DNA of 43,484 nt from a virus. The translations under genes were made by a program, and so were the position numbers. The stretch covers positions 1 through 43,484 of the IMG/VR virus record IMGVR_UViG_3300035390_000058. The stretch is one strand, 5' to 3'. Positions 22,698 to 28,312 of this stretch are shown piece after piece. The stretch's first letter is position 1. Every line of letters starts with the position of its first letter. Under the pieces are notes generated by a model. It did no database searches. It had not been told where the DNA came from and was given only the letters and a program-made list of their open reading frames with translations.

Positions 22698-23048
22698 TTA
22701 CTTACCTTTACTATTCAATAAAGGTGATACTTCATTAATGAATCTATATTCAGGATCATCCTGATAGACTGCAGTGATGTTAAATGTTCTTATTACTTGA
22801 ATTGGATTGTTAGTCTTGTATTCAACTTTCACAGTATTTCGTAAACTATTACCACCTGTATCTCCAGAATTAATATAGCGTCTAACTCTTACCTTAACTG
22901 TATCTTTATACGCACTACCAATATAAACAATCTCATCTTGTTTTGCTGGGTCGCTCAACAAATAATAGCCATTGAAATCAAGATCATTTAAATGATTAAA
23001 AGTTCTTGTTATTAAAATATTTTGCTCAAGAAAGTCATTTAAGTTCAT
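22698..23048 (-). CDS. GIY-YIG nuclease domain protein
   Basis: A 116-residue protein that fits a compact GIY-YIG domain: GYY at 27-29, YIG at 42-44, arginines at 54-57, and the terminal Glu100 followed by the PLLN motif (109-112). Phage enzymes of this fold act as homing or accessory endonucleases, or in cos cleavage. It is downstream of the HNH gene; without the IS110 insertion the two would be adjacent in one operon. A GAAAGGGTG sequence lies about 12 bases before its start. The catalytic residues are inferred from spacing. Confidence 0.75.
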   Translation of the reverse strand: MNLNDFLEQNILITRTFNHLNDLDFNGYYLLSDPAKQDEIVYIGSAYKDTVKVRVRRYINSGDTGGNSLRNTVKVEYKTNNPIQVIRTFNITAVYQDDPEYRFINEVSPLLNSKGK

Positions 23049-23144
23049 TTCTTATCAACACCCTTTCATTAAATATTATATCATGTATATAATATGTTTA
23101 TACAGAGATTATATAACAAATAGTAATCATTGTATAATGAAAAT

Positions 23145-23327
23145 ATAGGAGTCAATCCTATCAAAGAAATAAGTTTAAGTAATGTCGTATTATATCAAGG
23201 GTCTATGAATCCATTTTCGTGCCCGACATACTTATACTTTTTTTCTATCATTCCTATTTGAGAAAGTTGGGAGATTCAATTGATGAAACCCATATTATGC
23301 ATGATTGGGAGAAGAGAATAGTGTAAG
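23145..23327 (+). ncRNA. Candidate IS110 bridge RNA (recombination guide RNA)
   Basis: Three successive hairpins fit the known IS110 bridge RNA layout: a 5' stem-loop ATAGGA-TCCTAT (23145-23161), a target-binding loop closed by ATGTCG/CGACAT (23182-23187 with 23224-23229), and a donor-binding loop closed by CTTATACT/AGTGTAAG (23231-23238 with 23320-23327, one G-U). The first guide side of the target loop, TATTATATCA (23188-23197), repeats the left flank of the element at 23074-23083. A segment of the donor loop, GCATGAT, is complementary to ATCATGT at the left end. Presence of the RNA is inferred, not measured. Confidence 0.6.
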
Positions 23328-23349
23328 ACTTAAACTAGAAGGAGGAATA

Positions 23350-24570
23350 ATGAATGGCAAGAAAGAATATGTCATGGCTATTGACGTAGCCAAAGGAAAG
23401 AGTATGTTTTATATATTATCAGTTTATGGAGAAGTTATCATGGATGCGATTGAGCATAATCATACACTTAGCGGTTTCAAATTAATTGATTTAAAAATTA
23501 GAGAGGAGCGAATAAAACAAGATCTAGCAGTAATTATGGAATCAACAAGTATCTATCACTATCCAGTAATGAGGTACTTCTTAGAACAAGGATATGAGGT
23601 TATTGTGGTGAATCCAAACTTAGTAAAGAAGAGTTCCACAAGCTTTAGAAAAACAAAAACAGATAGATTAGATGCGATTAAGATCGCAGAAACATATTTC
23701 AAGGAGGAAATAAAAAGTAATGCGACTAAAAGTGGCAATTTATATGATAATTTGATGGCAGCAAACAGACAACTACTTAGTTTAGAAAAAGCCTTAACAG
23801 CGATAAAGAACCGATACACTAGAACATTAGATATATGTGTACCTGAACACGAACAATTCTATTCTAGCAAACAAAACAAATATAACAAAAAGTTCATCAC
23901 ACTGTTTGAATACTTACCACACAGTGACTATATACAAAGAACTAGAGTAGATCGAATAGCTAACATATTGAATATGGCATTCGAGTGGAAGTATACAGAA
24001 CGATTAACCAAAGAGGCTATAAAAATTAAGGTTCTATCAAAGAACTCATATCCTGGTGTTTCTAAATACAGTATTGAAGTTGAAAACTTAGGACAAACAA
24101 TACAAATAATGAAGTACTTGATGACTGAGCACGAAAGAGCAAGACAACGGTTAATTCATTTAGGTAAACAAGCAATAGAATACAAATTTATTGTATCCAT
24201 TCCAGGAATCGGTGAACAATCAGCAGCACAACTAATCGCTGAATTAGGTGATATATCAAGATTCAAAAACTATAGACAGATTAATGCCTTTTGTGGTGTA
24301 GAGCCGACAATATATCAATCAGGAAAAGCTTTCTACAACGGCAGAATATCAAAATCAGGAAATAAATCAGCAAGAAAAGTATTATACACAACAATATCCG
24401 GAATTAATATGTCACAAAGAAGATTTAACCCTGAACATCCATTACTTCTTCACTATGATAAAAAGAAAAAAGAGAATAAATCAACTAAAGAGTGCGTGAT
24501 TTCAACCTCAACTAAACTCATTAGAATTATATTCTCTTTGTGTAAGCATCAACAAATGTTTACAATGTAA
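23350..24570 (+). CDS. IS110-family transposase (recombinase)
   Basis: A 406-residue RuvC-fold DEDD transposase with C-terminal serine (Transposase_20) domain. N-terminal acidic residues: D12 in AIDVAK, E64 in IMESTS, D105 and D108 in KTDRLDAI. The C-terminus has IPGIGEQSAAQLIAELGD (helix-hairpin-helix) and YQSGKAF, whose serine (S324) is the likely nucleophile. GGAGGA at 23341-23346 fixes the ATG at 23350; the upstream ATG-like start at 23305 is not used. It appears intact and is opposite to the surrounding phage operon. Confidence 0.95.
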   Translation: MNGKKEYVMAIDVAKGKSMFYILSVYGEVIMDAIEHNHTLSGFKLIDLKIREERIKQDLAVIMESTSIYHYPVMRYFLEQGYEVIVVNPNLVKKSSTSFRKTKTDRLDAIKIAETYFKEEIKSNATKSGNLYDNLMAANRQLLSLEKALTAIKNRYTRTLDICVPEHEQFYSSKQNKYNKKFITLFEYLPHSDYIQRTRVDRIANILNMAFEWKYTERLTKEAIKIKVLSKNSYPGVSKYSIEVENLGQTIQIMKYLMTEHERARQRLIHLGKQAIEYKFIVSIPGIGEQSAAQLIAELGDISRFKNYRQINAFCGVEPTIYQSGKAFYNGRISKSGNKSARKVLYTTISGINMSQRRFNPEHPLLLHYDKKKKENKSTKECVISTSTKLIRIIFSLCKHQQMFTM

Positions 24571-24595
24571 GTTTACCACATTTTTAAAAAGTAGT

Positions 24596-24671
24596 CACTA
24601 ATGTGATTTTTTTAAGTATGTCTAAATTGTACTACATGATTTTTATCAACCTCACTATTGACAATTTAGAA
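24596..24671. other. Inverted repeats at the right end of the IS110 element
   Basis: TCTAAATTGT (24621-24630) and ACAATTTAGA (24661-24670) are perfect inverted repeats flanking the predicted right end, and a smaller TCAC-TAAT-GTGA hairpin (around 24596) with a T run precedes it. The first could be an element end-recognition structure or a terminator for the HNH gene. Confidence 0.4.
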
Positions 24672-24961
24672 AGACATGAAAGGTTTATTAAATTCCCATC
24701 TTTATCAAACAACTGTTTACAAGTGAATCTCTTGTGTTCCTTGTTATGACATTTCTTACATAGGAACTCCAAGTTATCTTGATTTAAACTAATATTTGAA
24801 TCCATTACGTTATGAGCTGTTAATCGTTTAATATGATGAACTTCTTCACCTAATGCACCACAACGTTCACACTTACCATTAACATCTCGTATTTTGATTT
24901 CTCTTGCTACTTGCCATGCTACTGATTTGTAGAATCGATGTATTTCTTTAGGCTTTCTCAT
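24632..24961 (-). CDS. HNH endonuclease
   Basis: A 109-residue phage HNH endonuclease with HHIK (H42, H43), the Asn63 and the C-terminal CHNKEHKR (H72, H76). The four cysteines (31, 34, 68, 71) hold the structural zinc. Phage HNH proteins next to terminase genes help cut at cos sites. The last residues are altered by the IS110 insertion: the uninterrupted frame probably ended ...SIVRLI, now it reads on to LIKIM before a new TAG. The catalytic domain is intact. The start overlaps the metK end by 14 bases. Confidence 0.88.
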   Translation of the reverse strand: MRKPKEIHRFYKSVAWQVAREIKIRDVNGKCERCGALGEEVHHIKRLTAHNVMDSNISLNQDNLEFLCKKCHNKEHKRFTCKQLFDKDGNLINLSCLSKLSIVRLIKIM

Positions 24962-26078
24962 AAAAGTTTCTCAATTCGGTAATCTTGTCATCTACATGTT
25001 CCCAACGAACATCTAAATCTTCTCTACCGAAGTGTCCGTACTTCGCTAACTCCTGGAACTTAACGCTATCAAGGCTGAGTTCTTTTCTTATGCTTTCAGG
25101 TCTAAAATCAAACACATAATTTACAAGTTCTTGTATCTCTTCATCAGATATGACTCCTGTATCAAAGGTATTAACTAAAACACTTACTGGCCTTGCTACT
25201 CCAATTGCATAGCTCAAATGAACCTCGCAGTGTGTGGCCAAACCTGCCCCTACAACGGCCTTTGCTACGTATCTTGCATAATAAGCCGCACTACGATCAA
25301 CCTTGCTTACGTCCTTACCTGAGAAGGCACCTCCGCCATGTTTAGCATAACCACCATAAGTATCAACGATAATCTTTCTACCAGTTAATCCTGAGTCTGC
25401 ATATGGACCACCAATGACAAACTCACCAGTTGGATTGATTAAAACTTCAGCATCTAAAATCGTGTCGAAATCAAATACTTTTGTTAATACTTCATTGATG
25501 ATAATATCTTTTGCTTTTTCTAAAAGTACTCCAGGTTGTGTTTGTGCTGAAACGACAATAGTCTCTACTTTCTTAGGTCTACCATTTTCATAACCAACAG
25601 ATACCTGACATTTTCCATCAGGACCAAAGATATGTGAATACTTCTCTTTACGAATCTTGTCCATTTCTTTTGAGATTTGATTCGCCAACATAATCGGTAG
25701 TGGCATGAACTCTTGCGTTTCATTACAAGCATAACCAAACATGATGCCTTGATCTCCAGCACCTTGCTCATGTAACTCTGTTGAATTTACACCAAGTGCT
25801 ATGTCACTTGATTGTTTGCTTATCTTTTCCATAACTACAAAGTCATCATTGTATCCAATTTCTTTGAGTTTTTGTTTTGCTATATTTGCATAATCTACTT
25901 TCGCAGTTGTTGTGACTTCTCCAAAGACAAATCCTAAATCTTCTTTGATTGCTGTTTCAACCGCTACTCGAGCATTTTTATCTTGTTCTAAAATAGCATC
26001 TAGTATTGCATCACTGATTTGATCACAGACCTTATCCGGATGTCCACTAAATACTGATTCACTTGTTATTATTTGCAT
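24948..26078 (-). CDS. metK: S-adenosylmethionine synthetase
   Basis: A 376-residue enzyme making S-adenosylmethionine from methionine and ATP. Family landmarks are all present: SGHPDKVCDQISD (residues 11-23), GAGDQGIMFGYA, DSGLTGRKIIVDTYGG, and the loop GGGAFSGKDVSKVDRSAAY. Length is close to the usual 380-400. AGGAGA at 26085-26090 supports the ATG at 26078; an ATG at 26099 is rejected. It sits between the methyltransferase and the HNH gene and would supply the methyl donor to the phage methyltransferase. The predicted terminator just upstream means it must use read-through or its own unseen promoter. Confidence 0.94.
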   Translation of the reverse strand: MQIITSESVFSGHPDKVCDQISDAILDAILEQDKNARVAVETAIKEDLGFVFGEVTTTAKVDYANIAKQKLKEIGYNDDFVVMEKISKQSSDIALGVNSTELHEQGAGDQGIMFGYACNETQEFMPLPIMLANQISKEMDKIRKEKYSHIFGPDGKCQVSVGYENGRPKKVETIVVSAQTQPGVLLEKAKDIIINEVLTKVFDFDTILDAEVLINPTGEFVIGGPYADSGLTGRKIIVDTYGGYAKHGGGAFSGKDVSKVDRSAAYYARYVAKAVVGAGLATHCEVHLSYAIGVARPVSVLVNTFDTGVISDEEIQELVNYVFDFRPESIRKELSLDSVKFQELAKYGHFGREDLDVRWEHVDDKITELRNFYEKA

Positions 26079-26108
26079 ATGTTTTCTCCTTTTGTTCATA
26101 AACGCACT

Positions 26109-26640: not shown

Positions 26641-27852
26641 CTATAGTGACTTATTTTCAAAGTAATCAAAATTGCTAAGTGGAGACCTTTCTCTATTTCT
26701 AATCAAATAGCAATTATCGTTTGATTCTTTATGTTTGATGTAGCGTTTAACAATAACATCTATAAACTTCTCATCTAGTTCCATTAGATACGCTTTTCGA
26801 TCTAATTGATCAGCTGCAATCATCGTTGAACCTGAACCACCAAATAAATCAAGAATAGTTTCATGTCTCCTTGAAGAATTACTTATTGCTTTTCCTACAA
26901 GCTCTAAAGGTTTCATCGTTGGATGTTCCTCATTCTTTCTCGGTTTGTTATATTCCCATATAGTATCTTGAGAACGATCATCAACAAAGTAATGAGCTGC
27001 TCCTTCTTTCCAACCATAAAGAATCGGTTCATGTCTCCAATGATAATCTTGTCTTCCAAGTACTAAAGCATTCTTCACCCAAACTAAACATTCAGCTAGT
27101 TTATATCCAGCTTTCTTGTATGCGTTTCTAAAGTTGAGTCCTTCTGTATCTGCGTGGCAACAATAGATTGCTCCACCCGGTTTCGTATGTTCAAACATGT
27201 TCTGAAAAGCAGCGTATAAAAAAAGATAGAAAGTATCATCTTCCATCTTATCGTTTTTAATCTTTCCTGCTGTTCCTTCATAATCAACATTGTATGGCGG
27301 ATCAGTAAAAATCATATCTACTTCTTTACCACCAAGTAATGTAGCTACTTGTTTTGAATCTGTTGAATCTCCACACATTACACGATGCGATCCTAACTCA
27401 TAAATATCACCTGATTGTGAGAATGGAACTTCAGGTATTTCATCATCAATATCAAAATCATCATCAGCTGCATTATCAGGAAGTAAACTTTCCATTTCCT
27501 CAAATCCAAACTGAAGCATATCCATATCTAATTTTGCTAGTTCATCTTCAAGTTTTGATAAATCCCATGTAGCAAGCTCTGCTGTCTTGTTATCTGCAAG
27601 CCTAAATGCTTTGATCTGCTCGTCATTTAAGTCATCTGCGATAATACACGGCACTTCTTCTAGTCCAAGCGACACAGAGGCTTTTAATCGTGTATGTCCG
27701 GCAATAAGGACGTTATCACTGGTAATTACAATAGGTACTTTAAACCCGAACTCTTTTATTGAATTAGCAACTGATTTTATTGCCTCATCATTGTTTCTTG
27801 GATTGTTTTCGTACTCTTGGAGTGCCTGTACTGATTTCATCACTATATTCAT
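26641..27852 (-). CDS. ParB-like plus DNA methyltransferase (beta-type N4/N6)
   Basis: A 403-residue fusion. Residues 1-90 are a ParB/Srx-like domain (NVLIAGHTRLKAS, about 47-59) and the rest is an amino-methyltransferase: motif IV DPPY at 184-187 (FTDPPYNVDYEG), and motif I FGGSGST near 337-343 (LDLFGGSGSTMIAAD). Motif IV before motif I gives the beta class, so it methylates adenine N6 or cytosine N4. AGGAGG fits the ATG at 27852; a GTG at 27870 overlaps that site. Such fusions are common in phages next to terminases and probably protect phage DNA from restriction. metK downstream supplies the donor. Confidence 0.92.
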   Translation of the reverse strand: MNIVMKSVQALQEYENNPRNNDEAIKSVANSIKEFGFKVPIVITSDNVLIAGHTRLKASVSLGLEEVPCIIADDLNDEQIKAFRLADNKTAELATWDLSKLEDELAKLDMDMLQFGFEEMESLLPDNAADDDFDIDDEIPEVPFSQSGDIYELGSHRVMCGDSTDSKQVATLLGGKEVDMIFTDPPYNVDYEGTAGKIKNDKMEDDTFYLFLYAAFQNMFEHTKPGGAIYCCHADTEGLNFRNAYKKAGYKLAECLVWVKNALVLGRQDYHWRHEPILYGWKEGAAHYFVDDRSQDTIWEYNKPRKNEEHPTMKPLELVGKAISNSSRRHETILDLFGGSGSTMIAADQLDRKAYLMELDEKFIDVIVKRYIKHKESNDNCYLIRNRERSPLSNFDYFENKSL

Positions 27853-28312
27853 TTGTCCATACCTCCTCACCTTTTTCTAGGCGTTTTTCCATAAGCTTAA
27901 TTTCTGCTTTCTTTTCATTATAGTCAATACCAAACTTCGTAATCAACAAGTATTTAATTGCTGATATATCAGGTAATGATTGTTTCTTATATTTTGTAAT
28001 TCGCTTCTTTGTTCCTGTTTTAGTTTCTTCAATTACTGTCTGTGTTTCTTCATATTCAAAACCTATTGCACGTTGATAGATTGCGTCAACTAATTTTTGC
28101 CTTAGCTCTTCATCACCGTACTGAAAAGCATCATTCAATCGTTTATGTACTTTCCTTAACTTGATAATCGTTTTTTCTGTAACACCTAAATATTCCGCTA
28201 CTTGTCTTTGAGTAGCTCTTTTTGATACCATTTCTGATATTGCTTTTAATTTTGTCTTTAAATGTCCGGATTTTTCCCATTTCTCGTACGTATCAAGCAT
28301 TTTTCCTTTCAT
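27788..28312 (-). CDS. HTH DNA-binding protein, terminase small-subunit-like
   Basis: A 174-residue protein. A helix-turn-helix is clear at about residues 32-52 (ATQRQVAEYLGVTEKTIIKL), followed by a long helical region (about 60-130) and a charged end. This pattern resembles helix-turn-helix terminase small subunits, but another small subunit is present at 21189, so it may be a regulator or a second packaging factor. It overlaps the methyltransferase start by 65 bases. GGAG at 28322-28325 fits the start. Confidence 0.65.
   Translation of the reverse strand: MKGKMLDTYEKWEKSGHLKTKLKAISEMVSKRATQRQVAEYLGVTEKTIIKLRKVHKRLNDAFQYGDEELRQKLVDAIYQRAIGFEYEETQTVIEETKTGTKKRITKYKKQSLPDISAIKYLLITKFGIDYNEKKAEIKLMEKRLEKGEEVWTNEYSDEISTGTPRVRKQSKKQ

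What the first reader, a model, noticed from the sequence alone, without database searches (positions are those of the whole stretch)
23145..23340. Bridge RNA of an IS110 element readable from sequence alone
Upstream of the IS110 transposase, three successive hairpins (5' stem, target loop, donor loop) match the published bridge RNA layout. The loop guide TATTATATCA (23188-23197) is identical to the left flank at 23074-23083. The donor-loop segment GCATGAT is complementary to ATCATGT at the left end. The shared word ATCA occurs at the left flank, the right junction and in both loops, pointing to a core inside ATCA. One guide (the right target guide) could not be matched, so the right side is less certain.
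Basis: partly seen in the sequence, partly recalled or inferred. Interest (0 to 1): 0.75.

Follow-up and report, generated by a model that had tools for sequence, protein, structure and literature searches.

The report
Phage transposon whose RNA targets promoters
A small jumping gene in a bacterial virus carries a guide RNA, readable from sequence alone, that aims it at the core of a bacterial promoter (the extended -10 box), and most of its relatives are programmed the same way, so the element has a landing site that nearly any such genome or virus offers.

Summary
The finding holds. Window 23084-24676 is an IS110-family element in a virus record, with a bridge RNA at about 23145-23335. A covariance model, compensatory base changes and guide-swapping tests support all four guides. 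The core is CA.

Of 26 copies with a left flank, 17 read exactly TGnTATAAT and 5 have one mismatch. Among 16 distinct left guides the freely varying position inside the motif is the 'n', while right guides are rewritten. In 24 of 25 related phages without the insertion, the same spot holds such a promoter. Two small lineages are re-aimed.

So this is the ordinary IS110 mechanism with a conserved, promoter-directed programme, for which the papers searched hold no precedent. RNA expression and activity are untested.

The parts
23084..24676 (+). IS110-family element, left end to right core copy (1593 bp); left core CA at 23082-23083, right core CA at 24675-24676
   Evidence: ends from alignment of relatives and from guide pairing
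23074..23083 (+). left target plus core TATTATATCA; on the minus strand TGATATAAT(A), extended -10 promoter of the gene 22698-23048
   Evidence: equivalent promoter in phages without the element
24675..24682 (+). right core plus right target CATGAAAG
   Evidence: pairs with 23214-23221, six Watson-Crick and two wobble pairs
23088..23093 (+). -10 box TATAAT in the left end, half of the promoter formed when the ends join
   Evidence: TTGACA-17-TATAAT across the joined ends; 17-nt spacing in all 12 elements compared
24658..24663 (+). -35 box TTGACA in the right end, other half of the junction promoter
23133..23138 (+). second TATAAT just upstream of the 5' hairpin, possible internal promoter of the bridge RNA
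   Evidence: similar box before the 5' hairpin in relatives, by inspection; inference
23145..23161 (+). 5' stem-loop of the bridge RNA
23173..23335 (+). bridge RNA core with closing helix GUUUAAG (23173-23179) and CUUAAAC (23329-23335)
   Evidence: covariance model match 23139-23352, 177.4 bits (the window is one of the model's ten sequences)
23182..23229 (+). target-binding loop: stem AUGUC (23182-23186) with GACAU (23225-23229), inner hairpin 23199-23212
   Evidence: helix 2: 3 of 5 pairs changed on both sides, 96% of cells paired
23188..23197 (+). left target guide plus core, TATTATATCA
   Evidence: identical to left flank; 0 of 20,000 permutations over 26 copies fit as well
23214..23221 (+). 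right target guide, TTTTCGTG
   Evidence: permutation p about 1e-5 over 12 elements
23231..23327 (+). donor-binding loop: stem CUUAUAC (23231-23237) with GUGUAAG (23321-23327), inner hairpin 23269-23291
23261..23267 (+). left donor guide, AGAAAGT, against the right end AGAAAGA (24668-24674)
   Evidence: covaries with the right end in relatives, p = 0.0025
23296..23305 (+). right donor guide TATGCATG plus two handshake bases AT
   Evidence: CATG, CACG or CAAG in the left end matched by the guide in 19 of 19
23350..24570 (+). IS110 recombinase, 406 aa, ribosome binding site AGGAGG at 23340-23345
   Evidence: Pfam, NCBIfam and solved-structure hits

Best explanation
This is an IS110-type insertion sequence in a phage of low-GC bacteria. 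Its recombinase uses a bridge RNA made from the left end. The target loop recognises the promoter TGATATAAT (left guide, bottom strand) and several bases beyond the CA core (right guide); the donor loop recognises the joined ends of the circular form. Recombination at CA inserts the element between the -10 box and its upstream DNA and leaves TG and TATAAT in place. Shown by sequence: the element and its ends, RNA structure, four guides, promoter target in most of the family, and an unoccupied equivalent site in related phages. Inferred: transcription, recombination activity, and that the promoter-directed left guide is kept by selection because hosts and phages alike offer such sites upstream of genes at low cost.
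For: Recombinase family and structural relatives. RNA structure conserved with compensatory changes; covariance model finds 17 further copies. Own guides fit own flanks better than swapped guides. CA at both ends. Junction promoter with 17-nt spacing in 12 of 12. Left target is exactly TGnTATAAT in 17 of 26 and one mismatch away in 5; a gene with a ribosome binding site follows in 14 of 26 against 3.1% of random positions; among 16 distinct left guides the 'n' takes all four letters while most other motif positions are nearly fixed. In 24 of 25 related phages lacking the element the same place holds TGnTATA(A/C)T.
Against: No RNA or activity data. Two lineages (L003-L005, L090-L091) carry other left guides, so promoter aiming is not universal. 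L003 and L017 fit their right guides poorly and L003 has AA at its left core. The window's right guide needs two wobbles. Elements are related, so permutation values overstate independence.
Confidence: 0.88

Rival explanations
1. TTATATCA is the conserved outer end of the element itself, not target DNA, so the loop match says nothing about target choice.
For: The motif is shared by the left side of most copies.
Against: Phages without the element have TGnTATA(A/C)T at the same place. L090-L091 and L003-L005 have other left flanks matched by other guides. The flank and the 'n' base vary between copies with otherwise near-identical left ends.
Confidence: 0.04
2. It is a bridge RNA element, but promoter targeting is a by-product: in AT-rich genomes TTATATCA-like words are common, and the left guide is conserved for another reason, for example as an antisense promoter inside the RNA gene.
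For: The guide DNA does read as an extended -10 box on the antisense strand (23197). The hosts are AT-rich.
Against: TGnTATAAT occurs at only 2 in 10,000 positions of these loci. The insertions sit ahead of genes far more often than random positions. Guides with another target exist, so the RNA does not need this word.
Confidence: 0.07
3. The upstream region is not a functional RNA but a regulatory leader of the recombinase gene.
For: No Rfam family matches, and no RNA data are at hand.
Against: Conserved structure with compensatory changes, high-scoring covariance matches in genomes not used to build the model, guide and flank covariation.
Confidence: 0.01

Closest known systems
IS621 bridge RNA and recombinase (IS110 group; PMC11208160, PMC11208158)
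   Same: RNA upstream of the recombinase; 5' stem-loop, target loop and donor loop; left and right guides on opposite strands; dinucleotide core; discontinuous or wobble donor pairing; junction promoter formed by -35 in the right end and -10 in the left end; catalytic serine position conserved.
   Different: Core CA instead of CT; the target is an extended -10 promoter instead of a REP sequence; predicted closing helix around both loops; no sequence similarity of the RNA was seen or searched directly.
ISEc21 seekRNA (IS110 type; PMC11187229)
   Same: RNA from the upstream non-coding region guides a transposase to a site matched on both strands; circular intermediate with a junction promoter.
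   Different: ISEc21 targets codons inside IS3-type transposase genes; here a promoter box is targeted.
REP-targeting IS110 elements such as ISPpu9, ISPpu10 and ISPa11 (PMC1525189)
   Same: IS110 elements that use a common non-coding sequence as a repeated landing site.
   Different: REP sequences are species-specific repeats; an extended -10 box is a general transcription signal shared by hosts and phages.
IS900 (from own knowledge, not tested here)
   Same: An IS110-family element whose reported target lies in gene-start signals (ribosome binding site and start codon).
   Different: Translation signal in a high-GC host, not the -10 promoter box; no guide comparison was made here.

Membership tests
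IS110 family (IS110 group) | DEDD RuvC-like domain plus Transposase_20 domain with catalytic serine | tested here: met
   Pfam PF01548 and PF02371; NF033542 above cut-off; D105, D108 and S324 aligned to IS621 residues; D12 and E64 invariant in close copies
IS110 family (IS110 group) | long non-coding left end with the RNA upstream of the recombinase gene, short right end | tested here: met
   266 bp before the start codon, 106 bp after the stop codon
IS110 family (IS110 group) | bridge RNA with target and donor loops, each with left and right guides | tested here: met
IS110 family (IS110 group) | dinucleotide core shared by target and donor at both ends | tested here: met
   CA at left end in 25 of 26 and at right end in all 13 elements with a right end
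IS110 family (IS110 group) | junction promoter formed by joined ends | tested here: met
   TTGACA-17-TATAAT in the window; 17 nt in 12 of 12; activity not tested
IS110 family (IS110 group) | RNA-guided recombination in cells or in vitro | not testable with these tools
   needs an experiment
IS1111 group | guide RNA in a long right end downstream of the recombinase gene | tested here: not met
   the RNA lies upstream and the right end is about 106 bp

The most novel reading that the evidence does not exclude
A clade of IS110 elements has settled on the sigma factor's own recognition motif as target, and its left end carries an outward -35-like hexamer (TTTACA or TTTACT, 17-18 nt from the retained -10) so that each insertion rebuilds a working promoter for the gene it lands in front of. 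The hexamer is present in most copies but also in a lineage that no longer targets promoters, and the window has only a weak version.
Probability: 0.2. Interest if true: 0.78.

Novelty: new variant of a known kind. Interest (0 to 1): 0.62.

Why it matters
Bridge RNAs are programmable, so what nature programmes them for is an open question. Here one clade keeps its left guide on the extended -10 box, the sequence read by the main sigma factor and found upstream of many genes in low-GC hosts and phages. That would let an element move between chromosomes and viruses without losing its target and with little damage to genes. The family also offers a natural series of guide and target pairs, including two re-aimed lineages, for testing how the two target guides evolve separately.

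Tried and rejected
Rfam scans found nothing at the gathering score or at a loose E-value, so the family had to be built from relatives. The window's record holds one copy. DNA searches of plasmids and phages, a recombinase scan of viral contigs and a DNA-pattern scan of viral contigs found no other copy. The protein left of the insertion has no relative in the collections searched; the HNH protein on the right gave the unoccupied sites. RNAalifold alone gave an incomplete structure because the 3' ends were misaligned; the closing helix was found by folding sequences singly and tested on a better alignment. More distant IS110 copies in the same hosts (L010, L011, L012; 32-34% identity) gave no match to the RNA model and were set aside. 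Literature searches for IS110 elements that target promoters found none; most subscription papers are not held. Two large genome searches failed on the server side; a smaller one worked.

Full report
The element. The window is a 43,484-base virus record. The open frame 23350-24570 is an IS110 recombinase by Pfam and by NCBIfam NF033542, 178.7 bits against a cut-off of 140. A sequence search of solved structures finds IS621 and ISCro4. In that alignment the window's D105, D108 and S324 fall at IS621's last two acidic residues and its catalytic serine (allowing for a two-residue offset in the deposited chain, my count). D12 and E64 are the expected first two acidic residues; all five are invariant in the five closest copies.

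Relatives. Four close copies (68-79% protein identity) lie in Mycoplasmatota and Izemoplasmatales assemblies. Genome searches by protein gave more distant copies down to 38% identity. A covariance model of the upstream RNA gave 17 further copies; in one order 17 of 117 genomes carry it. Three genomes hold two copies at different places (G252, G397 and G622), and in each case both left flanks read TTATATCA.

The RNA. The window folds at -47.2 kcal/mol, z = -2.7. Folding relatives one by one shows the same layout in most: a 5' hairpin, a closing helix (GUUUAAG with CUUAAAC), a target loop and a donor loop. On ten sequences 93% of cells pair, six pairs change on both sides, and slid controls reach at most 49%. 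Both loops hold an inner hairpin flanked by two guides, as in IS621 (PMC11208158).

The guides and the core. Aligning the ends of all copies puts the core at CA. The left target guide TATTATATCA equals the left flank. The right target guide TTTTCGTG pairs with CATGAAAG at the right junction; L004, L005 and L013 show uninterrupted Watson-Crick matches of 8 to 10 bases including the core. Swapping guides among elements lowers the fit: right guide p about 1e-5 and left guide p about 1e-4 on the first set, left guide 0 of 20,000 on 26 copies. On the donor side the left end reads CATG, CACG or CAAG and the right donor guide follows in 19 of 19 (0 of 50,000 permutations); the left donor guide follows a change from AGAAAGT to AGAATGT (p = 0.0025). 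Elements are related, so these values overstate independence.

The junction promoter. Joining right and left ends gives TTGACA-17-TATAAT in the window, and the spacing is 17 nt in all 12 elements with both ends. In the window the right end is two bases shorter and the left end two bases longer than in relatives, and the spacing is still 17.

The target is a promoter. Read on the other strand, the left target is TGATATAAT, an extended -10 box, with the core as its TG. Of 26 copies with a left flank, 17 read exactly TGnTATAAT and 5 have one mismatch. In 14 of 26 a ribosome binding site and an open frame follow within about 50 nt of the box's start, against 3.1% of random positions. Among 16 distinct left guides the positions that spell TATA(A) are nearly fixed, while the 'n' takes all four letters: 7 A, 5 T, 2 C, 2 G. 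The right guides are rewritten between elements.

The unoccupied site. The HNH gene at 24632-24961 (minus strand) lies right of the insertion. Forty-four viral contigs encode relatives. In 24 of 25 distinct close ones a TGnTATA(A/C)T box follows the HNH stop codon, in 23 of those with a start codon 20-35 nt on, and no element there; random stretches of the same length hold such a box in 2% of cases. Joining the window's flanks gives an HNH stop (TGA, from the core plus one base); the insertion adds a 14-residue tail to the HNH protein.

Exceptions. L003-L005 share a guide for TGATACAA(A/T), and the right flanks of L004 and L005 run into tRNA genes. L090 and L091 carry guides ending AAATTACA and sit at AAATTACA, not a promoter, with matching changes in left end and donor guide. 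L003 has AA at its left core; IS621 also tolerates changes at the first core base (PMC11208158).

What is inferred. That the RNA is made and guides recombination follows from IS621 and ISEc21 (PMC11208160, PMC11187229), not from data here. That promoter aiming is selected rests on the contrast between fixed left and free right guides. That insertion keeps the downstream gene on is possible, since the extended -10 box is kept and the left end of most copies has a -35-like hexamer at 17-18 nt; but the same hexamer occurs in L090, which no longer targets a promoter, and the window has only a weak one.

Novelty. The mechanism is known. The conserved aim at the extended -10 box was not found in the papers searched, which lack most subscription journals. 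From my own knowledge IS900 targets gene-start signals, a partial precedent.

Noticed in passing
24948-26099 (minus strand): The phage carries its own methionine adenosyltransferase gene (metK, TIGR01034, 473.5 bits), next to a ParB-like and DNA-methyltransferase fusion at 26641-27870.
   Followed up: no
24632-24961 (minus strand): The insertion removes the HNH gene's original stop codon and adds a 14-residue tail read from the element's right end.
   Followed up: yes
L038-L066, just after the HNH gene: In related phages different genes follow the same extended -10 promoter after the HNH gene, so this looks like a variable cargo slot with a conserved promoter.
   Followed up: partly
L036 and L037: Bridge RNA and left end without an intact recombinase frame nearby: decayed copies or elements that may depend on another copy.
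   Followed up: no
L090 and L091: A naturally re-aimed lineage: left guide for AAATTACA, left end CAAG with matching donor guide CTTG.
   Followed up: partly
Left ends of L013-type, L016-type and L018-type elements: A TTTACA, TTTATA or TTTACT hexamer on the minus strand lies 17-18 nt from the target's -10 box, as an outward -35 would.
   Followed up: partly
23189-23197 (minus strand): The left target guide itself reads as an extended -10 box on the antisense strand inside the RNA gene, a possible antisense promoter.
   Followed up: no
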